64,000 nt of DNA, from positions 4,603 to 68,602 of the forward strand of contig FN647962.1 of assembly GCA_000310025.1 (NCBI GenBank), given 5' to 3'. Under the pieces are notes generated by a model. It saw nothing but the letters and a program-made list of their open reading frames with translations, was not told where the DNA came from and did not search any database. Shown here piece after piece: positions 2,721 to 23,638 of this stretch. The stretch is from Ectocarpus siliculosus. Lineage: Eukaryota > Sar > Phaeophyceae > Ectocarpales > Ectocarpaceae. Positions within the stretch are counted from its first letter, which is position 1. Each line of letters begins with the position of its first letter. The translations under genes were made by a program, and so were the position numbers.

Positions 2721-5700
2721 CTGCAGGTTCGCCGGAGACGAGTAGATGGCGTCGTCGCGACCGCCCTCCCCTCCGGGACCGAACGGGTGCACGGGCTCGC
2801 CCAGCTTGCCCGATCGCTCGTTCACCATGTACAGCCCCATCGGCTCCGCGATGCATTCCTCCGCACCCTGCCGTCCATTGATTCACCCGCACACAGGTCC
2901 AGACCGAAGGCGAAGGCGGCCCCGTAGGAAAACGGGGGAGGGGGAGGGGGGGGAGGGGGGGGGATTGCCCATTGGTGCATGAAAAAAGACTCGAAATTCG
3001 TTCACGCCTTGGCTCACATATTCCACCCCGTCAACGTCGTCGCAAACGACTGCTTCGTTTATCCGGCAGTGCATGCACGATGGCGCTCACGACTTAGTTG
3101 TTTCGAGATGAGCTACAGCAGTAGCTCGCAACGGATCGGTGCGAGGCAACCAACAGCGACTTACATCCGTGAAGGACTGGAAGGTGTCGGTATTCTGGTA
3201 GCTAGACATGGCCTCGGGGCTGGGGAAGCGCTGCAGCATGAAGAACGCCGTGCGGTCCTCGGGGTCCTGATTATCCACAACAACACGCAAAAACAGGGCG
3301 TTAACGAGTGCAGGCAAAAGGAACTAAGCCAGATTCTACACAAAAAACAACTTACAGCACAAGTAGCGCACCACATTGTATGGCTCCTGTGATGCCCTGT
3401 TGGCACAGCACGCGCCAACCACACACAGCACGCGCCAACCCAACCGCTTTAGTACTGTTGAACGGCAACTGCGAGTACCGAATGCGTAGTCGCTGCTCAT
3501 GTGGACTTCTCGTACCACGAGTCAGGGGGAGAGAGCTGCAGCGGCCCAATCATAATTCAACAGATCAAACAAATCCCCAAGAAAGTGCCATTCTACGCAA
3601 GACACTGTGGGGCAAAAGTGGCAACTCCGACATGTCGCTTACACCGATCCAACCGGCTCGACAAAACGTCGGTTCTCGAGTCAAAACTAAACTCAGTCTC
3701 GCACAACACAGGGAGGGGGGGGGGAACAAGGTACCCGCAACAAGGCCCGCTGGACCAAGAGCAAGAAAAATTTCAGCGAGACACGTATCAATCAAAACAC
3801 AGGCAAGCAAGACAGAACGAGACACAACACAACAGCAAACCAAGACACAGCAGCAGCCATCCGTCACCTGGTTGACAGTGCAAGTGAACACGAGGTCCTT
3901 TTGGTTGTCCACAGTTTCTTCCACGAGGCTCTCCAGCAGGTTGCGCAGGGTGCCCTCGCGGCCCTTCTTGGCCTTGATCGAAGTGCTCAGCACGACGGCA
4001 CCCGGAGTCTGGCGGCCGGACAGCTCCAGCGTGTTGATCACCATGGACAGCGGCGGGGCCTTGCTCGCTGTGTCACGCGTGGAGGAAGCATCGGGTATAG
4101 CAGGGGCGAAGCAGAGTTAGCATTAGATGTACAGCGGAGGATCCGGTGAAAGGACTTGTGTATCGCGGAAAATACATATCGAAGTCGACGGTGTTCTGCG
4201 TTCTCCATTCCACCGCGATCATTCCCGCAAACAGTCATCACGATCAAGTACAGGATATAACCTTTTCGCGACGCTCAAGAATGTTTCATCTTCTAGCGCG
4301 CAACCTCCAAGCAGCAACTCAGTGGTGCACATACTGCTGGGGCCAATAGAGCTACACTAGAGAAATAAGATAGAACGCCCTACCAATGGTCTGTCATCTG
4401 TTCCGGCTAAAGATACCGCAATAATCCCATCACTGCGGTGGAATGCAGTGTACACGCTCGCTGCCCCAGTCTCTTGTACAAGTACTGAGCCGTACGCAAG
4501 AGGCAAGGTGCCGCGTGATATCTGCAAACACGGGGATGGGGGGCGGGGGCGGGGTGCTCACCAGCGATCGCCTCAAGCTCCTCTTGGTCAGGCATAGCCG
4601 CCACCTTCAGGAACCCTAGCGGACCAGTCTGCACGCAACGCAGCAAACATGTAGCAAGGAGGCCGGGTAAACAGACGGAAAGACATTCATCATCGTCGTG
4701 TCGGGAGTTACCCTAGACACATGGTGTCCGTCGACATCTGTCAACTGGATAGAGCGGCAGCCGCTTGTGTGTTTACTACGAAATTCTTGCGATACGCAAA
4801 GTGGTTCCCACGATTACGCCGTAACACCACGGTGCCACGGTAAATCTATTCACCGAACCCCGACACAGGTGGCGCGGGAATGCCATTGCGGTGTTTTGGT
4901 TGGCAATGGGCCAAGCTCTCCAGACACACAGTTAGTGAATGAAACGCAGGGACACGAGAGCGCAAAATCTACACGATGAATGAGACAGGCCACCCCACAA
5001 TTGGCCACCCCACAATTGACGATCTTCCTCGAAATACGAGACAGACGCACAAGTTTCAACTCCAACGAAATTTGGGAGCGCGTTACAGCCAAGGACGAAC
5101 CACCTGCTATTTAGAACGTGCCAAACTCACATCTGAAACGACTACTGCAAAAATCTCTATCCAAGCAAGCGCGACCCAGCGCGCACCGCCACTACCACTC
5201 CCGCGTCTACCTGCCCTACTACGTACCGCCAAGGTGATCATCGCCGCACCAATACCCTCCCCCTTCGCCTTGGCGATGAATCCCGCCGCGCCCGTCAAGA
5301 CCACATGCGCCGCCGCCGCGGTCAAGCACGCCGTTCGCGCCGTGTCTGCCGCCGCGTCGCTGAGGTAGCCCCTCGCCTGCCAGTCTCCGGAGAACCCCGC
5401 GTCCACGAGCCCCGCCAGCGCGACCACGAACACTGCCTGCGAACAGTATTTGAAACCAACAAAATAGAAGAGGGACAATACTCGTAACGGTAAATAATGA
5501 TGTAATCGACAGAGACAGGGGAGCACTGAGGCGCGGTTTTCAGGAACGAAGGGCCGGGGGACGTCCCAAGAGACGAACCAAAAGCAAGCAATGACCGACA
5601 GAATGCCAAGAGTTGCACCCAACGAGCTTAGAAACCGTGATGGTTTATAGTGTGCACGCGTGACAGGTGTGACAGGCACAACTACAGTAGCAAGGACGTG

Positions 5701-7126
5701 AGAGACGTGCTCACTTCACCAGACCTTTTGCGCCACTGGGTAAGCTTGGCAGAACTAAGCGGACCAATGAAAACATTGAGTCATGTCAGTAGCCGGATAG
5801 GACAGATCGACACCAGCCGCTAGCCCAGCCCCTTAGCCCACCTCACCAAAACTAAACTAACTTTATAGGCCGAACAACGACAACAAAGAGAAATCCTCAA
5901 GTCAGCAAGAATCCCAAGATACCCCTATCTCCCCGACACACCCCACACAAACAGACGCCTGTACAAGAGACGGCACGCACAGACGAAATCGAGACAACCT
6001 TCACAGCGGCAAAGGGCAGCGTCTACCACAAGCCAAATCAGGACAGAACGAGCAAGCGGGACGGCAAGGAGCGCGGAACCCGGTCCAGCGTCCGGCGACT
6101 ATACAGATGCATCTACGGTACCGCGCGCTCGCTACCTGGAGGCCATTGAAAATCGGTCCCTCAGTCAAGGGTCGGAGAGCAGCGAAAAAGTCAGTCCCCT
6201 CTTCCAAGTCCGGCACCGTCGCATCGCCCCCCATGGCACCGGCAGTCATGCTCAGAGCCGAGCACGATGACCGTCCTCGGCTGGTTCACGTGAGAAAAAA
6301 AACGCGTTTAGGAACGAGGCCATCCGAGACACAAAGGCATCAGCGGAGCGACGAAAGACCACCATAGACGAATGAGGGCATGACTTGCTGACAGCAAACC
6401 ATGGCAGAGTGAGAACGGACTTTGTGACGCCGATGGCAGATGGTCTTTGAAGGGCACCCGTCGCAACAGGGACATCACGACAAAACCACCGCACGCGGTA
6501 GGACATAAGCCAGCGGCGGGAAATCAGGAGGGGTATGGACAGCACCACACACAATTTTAGTAGAATAGCAATCCATGGACAAGGCGAGAGTGCGAGTCCC
6601 ACCGGCGTGGCATGACGGTCTGGGCGTAGCGCGCGTGTCGACGGTGCGACGAGGAACGTTTGCCGAAGCGACAGCTAGTACACGACCTCACCAAAGTTCC
6701 CTCGGCCATCCTGGGCACAAAACTACCCATCGCACTCACACCATACCCCCACACGCAAAAAAGGTAGACAGCAGCAATATCCAAAGCTCGACTTTCTACT
6801 GCTGTAGCGTTAACACCGGTGACGACAGTTGTAGACGTACTGACCCCGCAGACCGTACTCGCGTTATGCCGAAGCCTTGCCAACGGCAACAGGGGAGATT
6901 TCCACGAAATGTACAGCATAGGAGGTTTCATCGGGTGAGTGCACGTGATGGTGGCGACAACGACAAACGTGAGGTCTCACCATTCGGTCGTTGATCGAGC
7001 CCCGTCGGCCCACCGTTGCTGGGCCCTCGCTGCTTGTGTCCTGATCGGCAGCGGTGCCACGAAGCCCGAGGTCGGCAGCACAGCCGACGCCGCTAGGAAC
7101 AAGCACAGTCCGGACACCTTTCCCAT
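2721..7126 (-). CDS. Plastid-targeted membrane protein with ABM-like domain (3' end unresolved)
   Basis: Seven exons join in phase: 6981-7126, 6136-6250, 5227-5436, 4562-4628, 3868-4067, 3165-3266 and 2721-2867, giving 329 residues so far. Residues 1-25 form a hydrophobic signal peptide ending TSGFVAP, with Phe22 at the expected cleavage point. This is the bipartite presequence type of stramenopile plastid proteins, so import into the plastid is inferred. Exon 3 (residues 88-157) holds two hydrophobic, Ala-rich segments that are probably membrane-spanning. Residues about 195-280 (AVVLSTSIKAKKG, DRTAFFMLQRFPS, MSSYQNTDTFQSF) match the ferredoxin-like ABM or stress-responsive barrel fold, whose members are small monooxygenases or heme- and quinone-handling proteins. 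The substrate is unknown. The tail (MGLYMVNERSGKLGEP) is unfamiliar. The start is the ATG at 7126. The exon 7 donor (CAG|GTATGT) shows that at least one more exon follows; 2451-2534 is a weak candidate for it. Confidence 0.75.
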
Positions 7127-10131: not shown

Positions 10132-13100
10132 ATGACTCGCTGTGGTCCATCGTCCCCCGCCCCCCTCTCATCGAACTTCCCACCTGACAAAAATAAAAAA
10201 ATCACGACCAACACAGGACTGTTCCGCATAGGCTACGGCATGCTCCTCGTCCAGCGCACCCTTGCGTTCATGAGCAGCGGCGCCGTCGACGCCTCCTTCG
10301 TTACCGGGGAAAGCCCCGCATCGTCCCCGGGAGGAGTGGCTCCCAAGAGCGTGATCAACTTCGGCCACGGCTTCCTGTTGCTCGGCGGGGAGCTGGGGTC
10401 CCCGACAGCGGACGCGGTGCGGACGGCGTGCTGGTGCCTGTGCGCCGCAGGTGCCGCCATCTCCGTGGGGTTCCGGCCGAATGCGATGGCGTTTGCCGCG
10501 TCGTTGATGCAGGTCTGTCTATTGTTGTCTTGTCTGCCTTGCCTGTGCATGAAAGCGACGCCTGGCTCCCATGGTCGAGCCGTTCCGGCCGCTGAATTCA
10601 CGTATTACGCGGCAGTTTGGCCGGGGCGGACGCAGACGAGAGAAGTCGGGGTCAGGGTGACGGCCGTCGAAAGCGTCCGCGAATTGCGACGTTTCTGTTT
10701 TATCATCGCTTTGAAGTTGGTCAGTGAATTCGCACGGGCTTCAGAGGGGGGACAGCGCTCAAGACTCTACGAACCTCTTTTCGCACATCATGACACCTTT
10801 CTTTCCTTGGATCGCAACGGGAATCGACCTCTCTTAATTCTCTGTGCCAAACATTTGTCGCGAAGCACAGCAATGTCTCGCCTATATTTGTCCACCAGGC
10901 CTACCACACTGCCCCAAATGACCGAGCTTCGGCAACGAAAAGCACGCCTTATCTTGAAGTGTTGGTCAACCAGGATGACCCTCTCTACATGCCCTCAACA
11001 TGTCTTGCCACTGCCCTCGCCCGCCCACGCGTCGCTCGTGTTTGCAAGCTTTTCCTGCTGCTGCTGGAGAAGAGCGTGTACACAGACGAGGCCTACCTTT
11101 TTGCCCTCGTTGGTCTCCTCCTATCCTGCACTGACTGCGGAAAGACCCTTGGGCTGGACGCCCCTGTCCTCGAGGAGGACGGTGCGGCCGGCAACGGCGT
11201 CGGTGGCGCTGGGCGGGGAGGGGCGACGCGGAGTCAACCGCCTGATACCGTGCCACACTGGCACGTGGTGCTGCTCAGGTTTCAGGTGCACAGCAAGAGA
11301 GCGGCTACTAAATACTCCCCATGTAGTCCCTCGCCTTTTTATGAGCATCTCGGGCGAGGTCTGCAAAGCTTTGAGTTACTGCATCTTGTGGCATTTGTAT
11401 TCGCGGACAGATATCCTTTGCATGATTCGCGATGCCGTTCAGTCCAAACAACACCGAGTGTCGTCCGGGTATTACACCCTCGAGATGTGGATGTGCTGTC
11501 AACTGAGGTGCGTGGTGGTGCGTGAACGTTCGATGTGGAGGTAGTTGTTGCGGTCGCCACTGACGGAAAACGAATTTCTTGGACTAGAGATGTATGGAAA
11601 CAGATGGTTCTTAAAATTAACGCCTAAAGAACACAATTATCAGTGAAAGTACGTTGTGTAATATTTTTTCGTGCTAGCTCTATTGGAAGTTGAGGACGAC
11701 CATTACATGCCAATCGCCCATGCACTTCGGCAGCGAAGTGGCTTGCCCTTCTCCGTGCGTTAACTGCATGCATCGTTCTTCACCTCTCCGCTAACATCGC
11801 GAATATTATTTACAACAGGTGTGCATCGTGCACATACACCGGGGGCTCGCGAAGGCTTCCACGCTGGACTGGCTTATCGGGGGGCAGCCACTCCTGCACA
11901 CAATAGAGACATTGCCTCCCGCGCACCTGGCGCGAAGGGCGGCTGAGTGGGCTGCAGCAAGCGAGATCCCAGGATTGGGTGGGGGTGGCATGCAGGTGGA
12001 TCCCCTTTCTGCCAGCTCTATTTTGATCAATTATTAATTTCAAGGAAGAACGAGCACGGGCACTTAAGAGTTGGTCGTTTGGATTGTCACTGGTTTGCTA
12101 GGTGCGGATTCGGTGACAAGGGCTATGTGCCACCTCCCTGACCATCACGATAGGGTATAGACTTCCGCTCAACAAATTTGCCATCTCCGATATGATAAGA
12201 CTCTCTGTTGGGCCTCTTCCATCTCCCCCTCTCTCCCAGCCCCGCCCCCTCCCCTCGCCCTCTGTCTCCGCTTTGACCGCTCTATACTTCCCCTCACTCG
12301 CACACGTACCTCCGATCTATTTACGCAAACAGGCGCTCGCGATACGCGCGAACGGCTCCATGATATTCCTCGACCTGTTCTTGGGCTTGTCGCTCTTGGC
12401 GTCGCCGCACTACCGGCCGGCCGCCGTCGTCCTCCAGACCGCCGTACACCTCGCCAGCGCAGTCTTCGGCAGGCCCGATGCTCGCGCGTGGCACCTCCTC
12501 ATCGTGGCTACGGGAGTGCTCTTCGTCGACCCGGCGGGCCTACAGGGTGCCCTCGAACGCGTGCAGGCTTGGCTGCAGCCGAAGGTTCCACGCGGCACTA
12601 GCGCGCGCTATGCTGCTGCGGCGCGGAGGGGGCGGGGCGGAGGAGCGCGCGGCGGGGGCGGCCGGCGCCGACCTTACGAGAGTAGAGGTGCCGGCAGCGG
12701 CGCGGATGGGAGCGGGCGTTCTGGAGCTGGCGGTGATGGTTCGAGGCACCAGCCAGGGCCATCGCCAATGGCTGGCACCGATGCAGGGAGTAACGGGCAA
12801 AACGGTGCCGGCGTTGCCGCTGCCGTGGGAGACGACACAGGGTTGAGAAGAAGCGGCGCGGGGGGCGCTGCCCCCCCCCCGAAGAAGAAACTCCCGCTCC
12901 AACCCAGGCCGTCCTCGCCCGTCGCGGCGCTGATATCCTTGTACGTGCTGCTGCAAGTGCTGCTGCCGCTGCGCCACGCCTTGGGCATTTTCCCCGTGGA
13001 GTGGAGTCGCGAGGGGCATGAGTTTTCCTGGCGCGCGGGCGGCGGGGTCGGCGGGCGTGGCGGCGGCGGGGGGCTCGTTCGGGAGGAATCGCTAGTGAGG

Positions 13101-14573
13101 GTCATGCATCGCCCTCGGGGCAGAGACGGCGGTGCGGGGAGGGGATCGGCGGCGGCTGGGGTGCAGACCATACGTCTGTACGGGGCGCCCCTGACGGCTC
13201 AGCAGGTGTGGTTTTTTGGGTGTTCGAAGGTGGGGGGGGGGGTCGGAGAGTTAGTCGTCGTTGTCTTTTGTTTTCACGATAGTATCATTTTTTTGCTCAA
13301 GTACAAAGTGCACCGTTGATTACTCTACCCCGGTGTCTGTCGCACTTCTCTTCTTTTTTTGTATAGCGACAGGCAGCCATTCTCACAGCAAGTCTACCGT
13401 GTAGGGCTTACTCAAACCACACCGATCTACAAGGTCCACCCTCCCCCCCAACGGCCTGATGGCATTCACCACGCGTACAAATCGCGCCAGGTGCTCCGCT
13501 TGGTGCTCGACCCAGACATGCTCCTGCAGTTCGCCAAGAAGACGGCCGAGATCAACGCGGCAGTCGGCCATGGCCAACAGCAGAAAGGGAAACCCCAACT
13601 CCCGGCCGCCTCTCACGTGGACGCGTGGAAATCCATCAACGGCAGACCCTTCACGCGCTGGATCGACCCTTCGGTGGACGTGTGGGACGCGCGTTTCGAG
13701 GGGGAAGGGCCTCCGAACGCGGAGTGGCTGCAGTTGCCTCCCTTGCAGGCGGAGCTGGATAGGGCGGCGGGGGTGATGGAGGTATGCCTTGCCCCCTGTG
13801 TGTGTGTGTGTACAGCACATTAGACACTCCTCGATATCGAGATCTGTTGCCGGCGATGGACCAACTGCCGTACTGTAAATCCGATCGAGTCGCCATGTCG
13901 CCGAAACACACTCTCCGCGTATCATGGATGTAGCTTGATGGCTTGCTCCGTGGTTCGCTTCGTTTGGCACGTGACCCGACTACGATGCCCCCCCACCCCC
14001 GTGCTCCGTTATCCTCTGTCCCTGCTCTGTGCTCGAATCCCGCCGGCCCGGAGCCAGGCGGTGCGCGTCAAGTGGGCCACGAAGGACCAGCGGGTCACCT
14101 TCTTCGCCGGGTACCCCGGACAGGCGAGCCTCTCCAACATCTTCCTCGGGGGATACGATCCCTCGAACTTCAACACCACCGAGCTCTGCGCCGTGCCCGC
14201 GCCGCCAAACGCCGAGGCTTCTGGTTCGGGGGAGGGTGGCGGGGTGCTGTTTGGGGTGGCGATGGGAGAGGTCCACCTCATGACGGACCCGAAGAACGGC
14301 CAGCCTCAGCCAGAGTCTCGGCTGCTCACGGTCGGGTCGGGGACTGTACTGGCTCCCGTGGGCCAAGGGCACACGGTTCGCCCCGGAGCGTCGTCGCCCG
14401 TGGCGGGGAAGCGCGCCGGGGGGCTCGCGGTCTGGTATTACGTGCACTCGTGCCCCGATGGCTTGTTCCACCTGTGCATCGGGTTTCTGAGCGGCACCGG
14501 CTGGGAACAGCTGTACCCCGGCCGCATGGGGACTAGGAGGGGCTGGACGATGGAGCACGGGGTGCCCAAGTGA
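10132..14573 (+). CDS. Vitamin K-dependent gamma-glutamyl carboxylase homologue (HTTM family)
   Basis: Six exons, all joined in phase 0: 10132-10512, 11049-11285, 11819-11995, 12333-13205, 13491-13781 and 14058-14573, giving 824 residues (human GGCX has 758). The enzyme family carboxylates protein glutamates in the ER membrane using reduced vitamin K. Family marks in order: GLFRIGYGMLL (29-39), LFLLLLEKSVYTDEAYLFAL (128-147), VPHWHVVLLRFQ (195-206), HIHRGLAKASTLDWLIGG (211-228) with the catalytic-type Lys at 218, LPLRHALGIFPVEW and HEFSWR (about 476-499), LDPDMLLQFAKK, and SINGRPFTRWIDPSVD (about 604-619). A beta-type C-terminal domain follows. A Gly/Arg-rich insert of some 85 residues (about 360-445) is not in GGCX. 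The position of human His160 appears to be Glu141. The first codon is uncertain: an acceptor at 10216 could instead join an unseen upstream exon. Family membership is clear, but the modified substrate is unknown. Confidence 0.85.
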
Positions 14574-16606
14574 TGGACGAGCGGGGGTGTGGGGGGGTTG
14601 GAAGAAGGGAGCAGAGCGGGGGGGGGTTGCGTGTGCCCTATTGGGTGCGGATTTGCCTGACACCGTGTGTACTACGTACTTCAGAGACAAATCTGTTGTC
14701 GGAAGTCTGTTGTAGAAAACGAAAATCAGTTTTGGGGTTGTTGCTCGTTGAATGCTTAGTAAGAGCATGCGGTGGAACTTGGTTGCTTGATCGGCCTCGA
14801 TGCGGTGACGCCGGTTTGTTCGGGTCGATCATGCCCGAACGCTCGAGTTGTATTTTCTCAACTCGTCGGATGCACCAACTGGACCTAACAGCGGACAAAT
14901 CGAACATGCGTCGGACTTACATACATTGGTCTCTTGATGCTTCCGGCAGCTTGATGGCGTACGGGCTGTTTGCGCATGCAAGGAGGGAGGACGACCAAGC
15001 TATCTATACCACTGCAATAGTTGGAGGAGATTTTGGTACATGATTGTCTAACGTCAACTCGTCGACCCCGTTGAGCGTTGGTCTTGACAGGAACCACTGG
15101 CAACCTGCCCGCTGCCATGCATGATCAGCCGTAACTTTCGACGAACCGTTGTTCCGATCTCATGTCAAACATTAACCTTCGCATGTGCGGAACACACATC
15201 ATCCTGTCCTGAACCTGAGTACCCTGCACAACTTTCACGTGAATTTCCCGCCCAACACTACTGTACGTCAACAGCACCGCACCTAAAGAGAGAAAACGAG
15301 GCTTTGGGGGCACCTGCCTGACACGCACCCTGTCCTGCGGCACCGCTCCGCAAGCGACCTACGCGGGTCGAAAAACATCAAAATAATTGAAGCAAATCAT
15401 GATATCGGAGCAGCACTACGGGCTATGGGAGTAACCTACCGTAAGAGTCGGAGAGATGGCACCCCCGTGTTAGCGTTTTTGTATAGCGTATTTCTCCACA
15501 ACCAGGGGGGTACCACTGCCGAAAAGGGTAGTTTTGGAAACATCTCGTCGAGGGCTTTCCTGAGAGGTATCGGTTGGGGTTCGCACCCTCCTAGTTGTGG
15601 AGAAATACGCTACAAAAGAACGCTAACAAGGGGTTGCCATCTCTCCAACTCTTACGGTAGTACGGCGTTGGGCATATGCGTAGGGACTAATAGATCCGGC
15701 GGATCCATACACCCAACAACCGACTACCACAAAACACAAACATAGACCAAACAAGCGATCCATCCGGAGTGGGCTCATGAGAGCACAGCGTCATCAAGGG
15801 GTGATGCAAGATGAAAAACAACGCAGGTGCAGCAGGACCAACCCACAGCTGGCTGCCAGCTGCAGTGTGACGTTTCGCAAGCCCAACAGCTCCCACAACT
15901 AACGCACGTGTGTTTTACTCGGAAGAGCTCAGAGAACTTCAACGAACCAAAGAGAAAAATTTACAAAATCTGTGTACAATCTTACATCCATAAAAACATC
16001 GTCTCAACTTTCTGATTCCGATTTGCGATTTAAATTGGCCCGATTAATCGGATGATGGAACTCAGACCGATTCACAATCCTAAGATCCAGACGAAAATAA
16101 ACGTTCCGGTCTCTATTGAGTGTTTTGTAATATCCGCGCCTTCCGTGGTCACATGCCAACCTACCCACAGAGGGTACACACTTGTAGAATCAAGTGGAAA
16201 ATAAAAATGGACTCAGAAAATCTTCAAACAAATGTAATCGCAGATCACAAATGCCGGACTGGGAGGCGGTCGAACCCGGAGAGCGAGAGAATTTAACAGA
16301 AAGACAGAAAAAAAGGAAACAGGGAGGCCCCATCCAGACATGTGACCTGTACAAAAGTGTATTCGCGCAAGGTGGGTGTTCGGTTGCAATTCAAACGAAA
16401 GGATGGCCCACGCAGCCGCAGAGTCGGCTATGTACTTTTATATCTGCAACACTACCCGGTTCTTCCCTCAAACTTCCACCGGAAGCATCAGCTGTCCTGT
16501 ACACCTGGGCTCGCGTTGCCGAATCGACAACACACCCGCCGTCCGTGTAACTTCGTGTAGCTTCCTACATATACCTCTTGTGCTTGTACGTGCTCGAGTT
16601 TTGCAT
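14574..16606. other. Convergent intergenic stretch
   Basis: This lies between the 3' ends of the carboxylase (plus) and cystinosin (minus) genes. Apart from the inverted-repeat element at 15439-15657 I see no exon-like stretch; open frames are short and lack third-position bias. Both 3' untranslated regions should fall here. Confidence 0.5.
15439..15657. mobile_element. MITE with 65-bp terminal inverted repeats and TA target duplication
   Basis: The left end CCGTAAGAGTCGGAGAGATG and the inverted right end CCGTAAGAGTTGGAGAGATG pair over about 65 bp (continuing through TGTTAGCGTT and AGCGTATTTCTCCACAAC) with few mismatches. Both ends are flanked by TA (15437-15438, 15658-15659). The 219-bp element has no coding capacity. 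The terminal CCGTAA and TA target are shared with the three-copy family, so both may be moved by the same Tc1/mariner-like transposase. The well-matched arms suggest a fairly recent insertion. Confidence 0.85.
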
Positions 16607-22600: not shown

Positions 22601-23638
22601 TTATGGCCTTGTGCGCCGCGGCGGTGCGTGGGGTGAAGACGCGCGCCCAGAGATCCGCAAAAAATGATGCTAACATGTTGTGCGTGGGCTTTCTTGCCCG
22701 TGTTGTCCAAGCATCGGAATGAGCTGTTGAGTGGTTCGGCCTTGTCAGGAGTGGTGTCCGGAAATCAATTTTTTGAGTACATCCAGCGGGTACTACCCAC
22801 TTTTGTCCGAGAAAACCACTTTTGTCTACTGTATTTTCCCAAAAGAAAGAGCGAAAACTCTAAATACTGCATGGTGAGGTACAACAGAAAGAATAATAAA
22901 TACAGGTGCTGTAACGACAGATGGCAAAAAAAGTGGGAAAAAAAACGAAAAGGCTTGCTGCATGCGGTGGGGTTCGAACCCACGAAACTCGAAGGTACCA
23001 AGTCTTAAGCTTGGCGCGTTTAACCACTCCGCAACACATGCATAATGATCTTCCGCGATCGTGAATTTTTGGTATCTAAATAGAGATGCCCAAGAAGAGG
23101 TATTCTCCCTCAGGTTGAAGAACTAAATACCAACCACAGCAGCAGTTCATCACAGCTGACCCAACAGCATTCAAGCAGTCCAGTGTCAACTTGCTGTGTT
23201 CAATCAACTACAGCAGTTTTCTCTGCGATAAGCATCAACTTTACTGGGTCGACTACTGCTGTTGGTCAGCCTCCTCCCCGAACATACGAAACCTTCACCT
23301 CTATTCACAAGGCAGCTCATCTGTCCGCAGCATCATGAAATGCACACAGGCTGCTTGCTGCACTGCTATCGTTCCACCTTGTACCTGCAGAAATAGGTCC
23401 ACCCAACGATGGCCGAGATCCGTCGGTAGGGACCATGAAGCTCGTCAGAAGCTGGTAGCACCGATCCCAGCGCCACACCAACAACGACAATCGACCCAAG
23501 AATCAGAGAGGCTAGCGCGGGGTCTCCTCTCCCACGAACCCAAGCACGCAACGAGCGGCATGCGGGTGCTCCTCCGGCCGAAATGTCCTCGGAAGTATCT
23601 AACAGGCAGCTTAGCGACCTCACATGGCTGAAAGGCAT
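16607..23638 (-). CDS. CTNS: Cystinosin orthologue, lysosomal cystine/proton symporter
   Basis: Seven exons join in phase: 23385-23638, 20298-20419, 19627-19760, 18777-18968, 18162-18287, 17224-17334 and 16607-16771. With the start at 23638 the product is 367 residues, the same length as human cystinosin. It should export cystine from the lysosome or vacuole with a proton. Both PQ loops are present: WSVSFYPQVLLNYRRKTSVG (Pro92) and IIKYVPQVILN (Pro244). Residues matching human Asp205 (LNDAVFALH, Asp153), Asp305 (NVILDLTGG, Asp266) and Lys335 (GYPVKFAIG, Lys296) are kept. The C-terminus lacks a GYDQL-type sorting signal and ends in an acidic tail (WWIDEEDDGSSTREE), so targeting may differ. The first exon's start is uncertain; its core is the hydrophobic LASLILGSIVVVGVALG and IVGWTYFC. 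Intron 1 is 2.9 kb and hosts a tRNA gene and a repeat array. Confidence 0.9.
17490..17548. other. Assembly gap inside a poly-C run
   Basis: Fifty-nine N lie between C runs of about 17 and 25 bases, inside a cystinosin intron (between the exons at 18162-18287 and 17224-17334). The true length is probably unknown and the run is likely a sequencing break in a C homopolymer. No exon is affected. Confidence 0.95.
18974..19019 (+). repeat. GTT/GGT trinucleotide microsatellite
   Basis: Six GTT repeats, a TACTGTT break, then further GTT and GGT repeats lie immediately upstream of a cystinosin exon on the minus strand. There they read as AAC/ACC repeats just before the acceptor. Length changes here would alter the branch-point and acceptor spacing. 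Confidence 0.85.
20535..20651 (-). repeat. Two-copy interspersed repeat with tRNA-like segment (copy 1)
   Basis: About 115 bp, from TACTCTTATGTTTTGTGCAT to the TTTCCTGCTTT word, recurs at 39109-39223 with roughly 90 percent identity. Both copies sit next to a G run. On the minus strand it contains GTGGTCAATGGTCTAACCGC then TAAGGCATGC (as in copy 2; copy 1 has one substitution), which resembles the D-arm (A box) of a tRNA. I found no matching B box. A tRNA-derived SINE fragment is the leading guess. It lies in cystinosin intron 1. Confidence 0.6.
21960..22365 (+). repeat. GGCGGTAA-rich tandem array, about 105-bp units
   Basis: GGCGGTAA or close variants occur more than 20 times. They are organised in about three higher-order units of 100-107 bp starting near 22011, 22117 and 22219. 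Each unit has the order GGCGGTAATTG, GGTAGGCGGTAATGCGTTTT, TTGGCGGAGGCGG, AATTTTTCGG. The right end degrades into GGCGGTAAAA words. The array is intronic in the cystinosin gene and non-coding. Confidence 0.8.
22486..22840. repeat. Inverted GACAAAAGTGGGTA repeats
   Basis: The left part (22486-22540) holds three spaced copies of a word near GACAAAAGTGGGTAC. The right part (22785-22840) holds inverted copies (GTACTACCCACTTTTGTC, then CCACTTTTGTC). About 245 bp lies between them. The arms could be the ends of a small element, but I found no clean target duplication. Confidence 0.4.
22959..23041 (-). tRNA. tRNA-Leu (anticodon UAA)
   Basis: On the minus strand a complete type II cloverleaf reads: acceptor GCATGTG pairing with CGCATGC and discriminator A; D-arm region GCGGAGTGGTTAAACGC; anticodon stem CCAAG / CTTGG around loop CTTAAGA, anticodon TAA; long variable arm TACCTTCGAGTTTC; T arm GTGGG-TTCGAAC-CCCAC. 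The long variable arm, A discriminator and anticodon agree on leucine (UUA codon). There is no encoded CCA and no intron. It lies in the first intron of the cystinosin gene on the same strand, with its own A and B boxes for RNA polymerase III. Confidence 0.95.

What the first reader, a model, noticed from the sequence alone, without database searches (positions are those of the whole stretch)
10132..14573. Gamma-glutamyl carboxylase homologue in an algal genome
The six-exon gene carries the HTTM membrane core and the C-terminal domain of vitamin K-dependent carboxylase, in the same order as human GGCX. The Lys in GLAKASTLDW aligns with catalytic Lys218. If active, it implies glutamate carboxylation using phylloquinone in a photosynthetic stramenopile, whose protein targets are unknown. 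Calcium-binding secreted or cell-wall proteins are an obvious but unproven class of target.
Basis: partly seen in the sequence, partly recalled or inferred. Interest (0 to 1): 0.8.

Follow-up and report, generated by a model that had tools for sequence, protein, structure and literature searches.

The report
Algal carboxylase relative with altered pocket
A photosynthetic alga carries a single, intron-split gene related to the human vitamin K-dependent enzyme that activates clotting factors, but several residues that hold vitamin K and glutamate in the human enzyme are replaced, so it probably does not do the same job.

Summary
Joining the exons gives a protein that passes Pfam's cut-offs for HTTM (57.4 bits) and for the vitamin K carboxylase lumenal domain (55.5 bits), in the GGCX order. 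The catalytic lysine (human K218) is kept. It is the only lumenal-domain gene found in the 189-Mb genome. The genome also encodes an ER-type VKOR with all four redox cysteines and, by motif, a plastid-type one.

The functional inference is weakened. In 129 distinct prokaryotic relatives plus human GGCX, N159, H160, K218, F286, I296, G297 and F299 never vary and position 214 is always Ala or Gly. The alga keeps K218 but has Asp, Glu, Val, a gapped stretch without I-G-x-F, and Arg214. H160 is reported essential for carboxylation, and A214W severely impairs human GGCX. The algal branch is twice as long as the human one. The last exon shows no detectable homology to GGCX; the 5' end is unresolved.

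Best reading: a real, highly diverged VKGC-family membrane protein, probably not a glutamate gamma-carboxylase: a changed-substrate enzyme or a pseudoenzyme. No other algal relatives could be searched.

The parts
10217..10512 (+). E1: first homologous exon, first helices of HTTM (LFRIGYG; R68, G72 and G132 equivalents kept); true 5' end unresolved, possible upstream exon
   Evidence: acceptor AG at 10215-10216, donor cag/GTCTGT at 10513. Weak on its own
11049..11285 (+). E2: HTTM TM4; carries T-D-E where human has N158-N159-H160; Y162 kept
   Evidence: weak HTTM match of this exon in the whole-genome search (E 0.162)
11819..11995 (+). E3: HTTM TM5; GLAK carries the K218 equivalent, Arg at position 214, Asp-Trp (222-223) kept after a one-residue insertion
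12333..13205 (+). E4: TM6 to TM9 region, a Gly/Arg-rich insert of roughly 90 residues, and start of the lumenal domain (WSREGHEFSWR)
13377..13781 (+). E5: carboxylase lumenal domain (DPDMLLQFA ... SINGR..IDPSVDV ... EWLQLPPL); acceptors giving starts at 13377 or 13389 both keep the phase
14058..14573 (+). E6: C-terminal exon with stop; no detectable homology

Best explanation
A single-copy nuclear gene for a membrane protein of the vitamin K-dependent gamma-carboxylase (VKGC/GGCX) family: HTTM membrane core plus lumenal domain. Shown: homology, domain order, retained equivalents of Lys218, Asp222-Trp223, His287, Trp399 and lumenal Asp442, Gln446, Asn474, Arg476 and Trp501, and replacement of residues that hold glutamate (N159D, H160E) and vitamin K (A214R, F286V, F299 region) in human GGCX. 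Inferred: the positively charged glutamate pocket has become acidic and the quinone tunnel blocked or polar, so the protein is probably not a glutamate gamma-carboxylase. It most likely works as a lumenal-facing membrane protein that still binds a protein or lipid partner through the conserved scaffold, either with a changed substrate or without catalysis.
For: Pfam HTTM 57.4 bits and VKGC_lumenal_dom 55.5 bits. N159, H160, K218, F286, I296, G297 and F299 are 80 of 80 in one prokaryotic set and 50 of 50 in a second set picked by the lumenal domain alone; position 214 is Ala/Gly in 80 of 80 and 50 of 50; one gene is in both sets, so 129 are distinct. Of 23 columns invariant in 32 cluster representatives plus human, the alga keeps 13; each of the 32 representatives, tested leave-one-out, keeps 23 of 23 or 23 of 24. 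Six of the ten lost columns (N159, H160, F286, N290, F299, M401) are residues that the human cryo-EM paper puts in the glutamate or vitamin K pocket; it reports A214W, M401W and the F286/294/299G triple mutant among severely impaired mutants, and H160A as compromising carboxylation (PMC12589487, parts 1 and 2 of 3 read). A review names Lys218 and His160 as essential for carboxylase activity (PMC9146348, passages). End branch of the alga 8.64 against 4.4 for human and a median of 0.72.
Against: K218, the base that starts the reaction, is kept, and an ER-type VKOR exists to recycle vitamin K, as expected of a working vitamin K cycle. Human GGCX, which works, itself keeps only 23 of the 29 columns invariant in the 32 representatives (the alga 18 of 29), so some drift is tolerated. 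N290 and M401 also vary in the second prokaryotic set and N290W human GGCX is partly active, so these two count for little; W315, lost too, varies there as well. The alignment in 286-299 needs gaps, so the I296/G297/F299 assignments are uncertain. The first set was found with a pattern covering 294-301. No eukaryotic relative except human could be compared; closer relatives might show that the changes are tolerated. No structure was computed.
Confidence: 0.62

Rival explanations
1. An active gamma-glutamyl carboxylase: it uses phylloquinone hydroquinone regenerated by the ER VKOR to carboxylate glutamates in secreted or wall proteins.
For: Domain order and K218; lumenal residues D442, Q446, R476, W501 kept; VKORC1-type VKOR with four cysteines.
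Against: H160E, N159D, A214R, F286V and loss of the I296-F299 pattern, all invariant (214: Ala/Gly only) in 129 distinct prokaryotic relatives plus human; H160 reported essential. No Gla domain match in the genome, but no control genome rang in that search.
Confidence: 0.15
2. A decaying gene (unitary pseudogene in early decay): frames still open but no longer constrained in the active site.
For: Longest branch in the tree, low-complexity insertions, unresolved 5' end.
Against: Five internal introns all GT..AG and phase 0, no stop in about 2.5 kb of joined coding sequence; K218 and other scaffold residues kept while pocket residues are lost, which plain decay would not favour.
Confidence: 0.1
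3. Wrong gene model: alternative exons or junctions would restore the pocket.
For: No cDNA; the E5 acceptor and the 5' end are uncertain; E3 and E1 alone are not separable from noise in the window scan.
Against: The altered residues lie inside exons, in the same open frame as well-aligned flanks; the best frame outside the gene scores only 3.7 bits, against 36.6, 27.4 and 14.1 for the frames of E4, E5 and E2.
Confidence: 0.05

Closest known systems
Human gamma-glutamyl carboxylase GGCX (PDB 9bum, 9l6q and others, listed)
   Same: HTTM core followed by lumenal domain; K218, D222, W223, H287, W399, D442, Q446, R476, W501 equivalents
   Different: N159D, H160E, A214R, F286V, F299 region not recognisable, M401A, K217A; Gly/Arg-rich insert; C-terminal exon without detectable similarity. 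The human enzyme was not found directly by single-sequence search, only through the family profile
Prokaryotic HTTM/VKGC proteins (e.g. Paracoccus albus WP_271073465.1, Bernardetia WP_338815710.1)
   Same: Same two Pfam domains; Ala217 and His395 as in many prokaryotes
   Different: All 129 distinct genes compared keep Asn-His, Lys and Phe286; the alga keeps only the Lys. Highest identity to the alga 28%
Leptospira VKGC orthologue (recalled, no call; said to have altered activity and not to carboxylate proteins)
   Same: Precedent for a family member that is not a protein carboxylase
   Different: Not compared here
SdpB-type HTTM proteins (NCBIfam TIGR04033)
   Same: Weak match over HTTM, 13.4 bits against a cut-off of 178.4
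   Different: Far below cut-off; the algal protein has the VKGC lumenal domain

Membership tests
VKGC/GGCX family (Pfam sense) | HTTM domain PF05090 above cut-off | tested here: met
   57.4 bits, cut-off 27.7
VKGC/GGCX family (Pfam sense) | VKGC lumenal domain PF22777 above cut-off, C-terminal to HTTM | tested here: met
   55.5 bits, cut-off 27.7; also found exon by exon in the genome
Functional gamma-glutamyl carboxylase | Lys218 base | tested here: met
   GLAK aligned; invariant in 80 of 80 and 50 of 50
Functional gamma-glutamyl carboxylase | Asn159-His160 in the glutamate pocket | tested here: not met
   Asp-Glu in the alga; invariant in 80 of 80 and 50 of 50 prokaryotic rows (129 distinct) plus human
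Functional gamma-glutamyl carboxylase | Small residue at 214 and Phe286/Phe299 in the vitamin K pocket | tested here: not met
   Arg214, Val286; F299 column holds Arg in a gapped alignment
Functional gamma-glutamyl carboxylase | Gamma-carboxylation of glutamate with vitamin K epoxidation | not testable with these tools
   needs an assay or mass spectrometry
Vitamin K cycle | ER-type VKOR with four redox cysteines in the same genome | tested here: met
   G000:C11:2951200-2955037 region; 144 aa joined by eye match a VKOR-like protein at 1.1e-23 and human VKORC1 at 4.4e-17, Pfam VKOR 97.1 bits
Animal-type GGCX | C-terminal part beyond the PF22777 domain similar to human | tested here: inconclusive
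   No PDB or Pfam match; 96 of 5000 or 848 of 5000 shuffles score as well, by gap cost, against human letters recalled from memory

The most novel reading that the evidence does not exclude
A vitamin K-type base enzyme with a new substrate: the algal protein keeps the quinol-deprotonating lysine but has exchanged the positive glutamate pocket (Asn-His) for an acidic one (Asp-Glu), with an Arg at 214, so it may use lysine-initiated quinol oxygenation on a different, perhaps basic or neutral, target in the algal secretory pathway, with quinone recycled by the ER VKOR.
Probability: 0.15. Interest if true: 0.8.

Novelty: new variant of a known kind. Interest (0 to 1): 0.42.

Why it matters
Vitamin K chemistry outside animals is hardly characterised. 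An alga with a VKORC1-type reductase but a carboxylase relative whose glutamate and quinone pocket is rewritten would mark either the loss of gamma-carboxylation in this lineage or a new use of the scaffold. It also warns that a domain hit plus the catalytic lysine is not enough to name a gene a gamma-glutamyl carboxylase.

Tried and rejected
Single-sequence PDB searches with the algal protein found nothing at E 1 or, for its C-terminal half, at E 10, although the family profile aligns it; the C-terminal part alone gave only a chance match to a TRIC channel. tblastn against plasmids found nothing at 0.01 and, with a further trimmed query at E 10, two bacterial HTTM proteins (3e-4 and 8) that opened the family. 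Viral contigs: no relative. A search for an upstream first exon with a phase-1 donor, filtered on a few endings, gave no convincing candidate. Gla domain in the own genome: none, but no control genome rang, so it says nothing. Own-genome search with the bacterial relative P0002 found nothing, without a control; the same with the algal protein did not complete, so further copies are excluded only by the PF22777 search and the HTTM searches, which ring weakly or not even at this gene's own HTTM exons. Considered and rejected: a sequencing error as cause of T-D-E (by eye: flanking codons in frame, no single indel gives Asn-His). Literature: no paper on a carboxylase of this family in algae was seen in the titles and abstract beginnings listed by searches; one search (VKOR with brown algae) held no paper. 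The lists are capped and subscription journals are mostly not held, so this is no proof of absence. PMC4555120 (VKOR phylogeny) was seen as passages only.

Full report
What is there. The window lies in contig 40 of a 189.5-Mb genome of 492 contigs. On the + strand, 10217-14573, six exons join into one frame; the five internal introns are GT..AG and phase 0. Pfam assigns HTTM (PF05090, 2.1e-15) and the vitamin K-dependent carboxylase lumenal domain (PF22777, 8.1e-15), both at about twice their curated cut-off. The PF22777 search of the whole genome rings only at this locus, in two exons. HTTM rings nowhere at 0.001 and at E 10 only in exon 2 of this gene (E 0.162). These searches work exon by exon, so another gene split differently could be missed. 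The organism is photosynthetic: 87 matches to the light-harvesting family. That it is a stramenopile was not tested.

How firm each exon is. With the family profile, the frames of E4, E5 and E2 stand out in the window (36.6, 27.4, 14.1 bits), E3 has 6.3 and E1 2.7, and the best unrelated frame has 3.7. E1 and E3 rest on the joined alignment, which runs on through the junctions (LLRFQ/VCIVHI).

The 5' end.

Building the comparison. tblastn against plasmids brought two bacterial proteins with the same two domains, one of which matches human GGCX chains in the PDB at 7e-37. A scan of 84,980 prokaryotic genomes gave 154 relatives, of which 80 were returned. I used 78 of these plus the two plasmid proteins, 80 in all. 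A second set of 50 came from 395 genomes of the phylum of a Saprospiraceae bin, 82 of which carry the lumenal domain; they were found by PF22777 alone, so no membrane-core motif was selected. One gene is in both sets, which leaves 129 distinct.

The active site. In human numbering, N159, H160, Y162, K218, W223, F286, I296, G297 and F299 are present in 80 of 80 and 50 of 50, although the first set was found with a pattern that covers 294-301; position 214 is Ala 72/Gly 8 and Ala 42/Gly 8. N290 and M401 are 80 of 80 in the first set but Thr in 35 of 50 and Val in 35 of 50 of the second, so their loss in the alga (Ser, Ala) carries little weight; the same goes for W315. The alga has T-D-E in place of N158-N159-H160, Arg at 214, Lys at 218, Asp-Trp after one extra residue, Val at 286 and His at 287; the 294-299 stretch aligns only with gaps and lacks the I-G-x-F pattern. 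Of 23 columns invariant in 32 cluster representatives and human, the alga keeps 13 (R68, G72, G132, Y162, K218, D222, W223, W236, H287, P378, W390, W399, N474) and loses ten (L64, N159, H160, F286, N290, I296, G297, F299, W315, M401); each representative in turn keeps 23 of 23 or 23 of 24. Against the columns invariant in the representatives alone, human keeps 23 of 29 and the alga 18 of 29, so the alga is worse than human, but human GGCX is not perfect either.

What those residues do. The cryo-EM study of human GGCX (PMC12589487; parts 1 and 2 of the 3 parts of the text read) places N159, H160 and Y395 on the substrate glutamate side chain in a positively charged pocket next to K218, and F286, F294, F299, H160, V210, M401 and W223 on the naphthoquinone ring, with A214, V254, V255, G258, G259 and N290 along the isoprenyl tunnel. 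Most pocket mutants (A214W, G259W, M401W, F286/294/299G) were severely impaired, N290W was partly active, and K218A abolished catalysis. A review (PMC9146348, passages) names Lys218 and His160 as essential. Asp159 and Glu160 in the alga reverse the charge of the glutamate pocket, and Arg214 puts a long charged side chain where the prokaryotes have only Ala or Gly. This is inference from position; no structure was computed.

The rest of the scaffold. Lumenal residues D442, Q446, N474, R476 and W501 are kept. The tree gives the alga an end branch of 8.64 against 4.4 for human and a median of 0.72; its place is unresolved, and its meeting with another long branch is flagged as possibly false. The algal row was trimmed of its insertions for this. 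Highest identity is 28%.

The vitamin K cycle. Two VKOR loci pass the Pfam cut-off. The one on contig 11 (locus L093) has four exon pieces that join by eye to a VKORC1-type protein with the pair of loop cysteines (CDVSERMSC) and CLIC; it matches a VKOR-like protein at 1.1e-23 and human VKORC1 at 4.4e-17. The one on contig 22 has PCPWC, which by recall is the plant and cyanobacterial (LTO1) type. An ER VKOR fits a vitamin K cycle but also disulfide formation, so it is not decisive. No Gla-domain match was found, but no control genome rang either.

Verdict. The finding is a real, divergent member of the VKGC family, for which I saw no paper in my searches (listings only). Membership by domains is met; the functional definition fails at the glutamate pocket. 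I put 0.62 on a protein that is not a glutamate gamma-carboxylase, 0.15 on an active carboxylase, and smaller odds on decay or a wrong model. Orthologues from other algae would settle most of this and could not be reached here.

Noticed in passing
G000:C11:2951200-2955037 (locus L093), outside the window: Animal-like ER-type VKORC1 homologue in four exon pieces with all four redox cysteines; human VKORC1 4.4e-17.
   Followed up: partly
G000:C22:2201655-2203056, outside the window: Second VKOR locus with a PCPWC motif, looks like the plastid/cyanobacterial type.
   Followed up: partly
window 15436-15511 and 15585-15660: Inverted repeat with 76-base arms, 89% complementary, 73 bases apart, just downstream of the gene; perhaps a small inverted-repeat element.
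   Followed up: partly
window 22957-23042, - strand: tRNA-Leu (taa), found by ARAGORN and Rfam.
   Followed up: no
window 5110-5715, - strand: 202-residue open frame with a match to DUF7887 just below cut-off (22.4 bits against 24). The nine other long open frames scanned there had no Pfam match.
   Followed up: no
L009:3543-3932 beside L009:4020-5411: In Paracoccus albus a DUF393 gene lies divergently next to the HTTM/VKGC gene.
   Followed up: no
prokaryotic genomes: The VKGC lumenal domain is common in the phylum of the Saprospiraceae bin: 82 of 395 genomes, some with two or three matches; in the 50 genes read, 35 have Thr for N290 and 35 Val for M401.
   Followed up: partly
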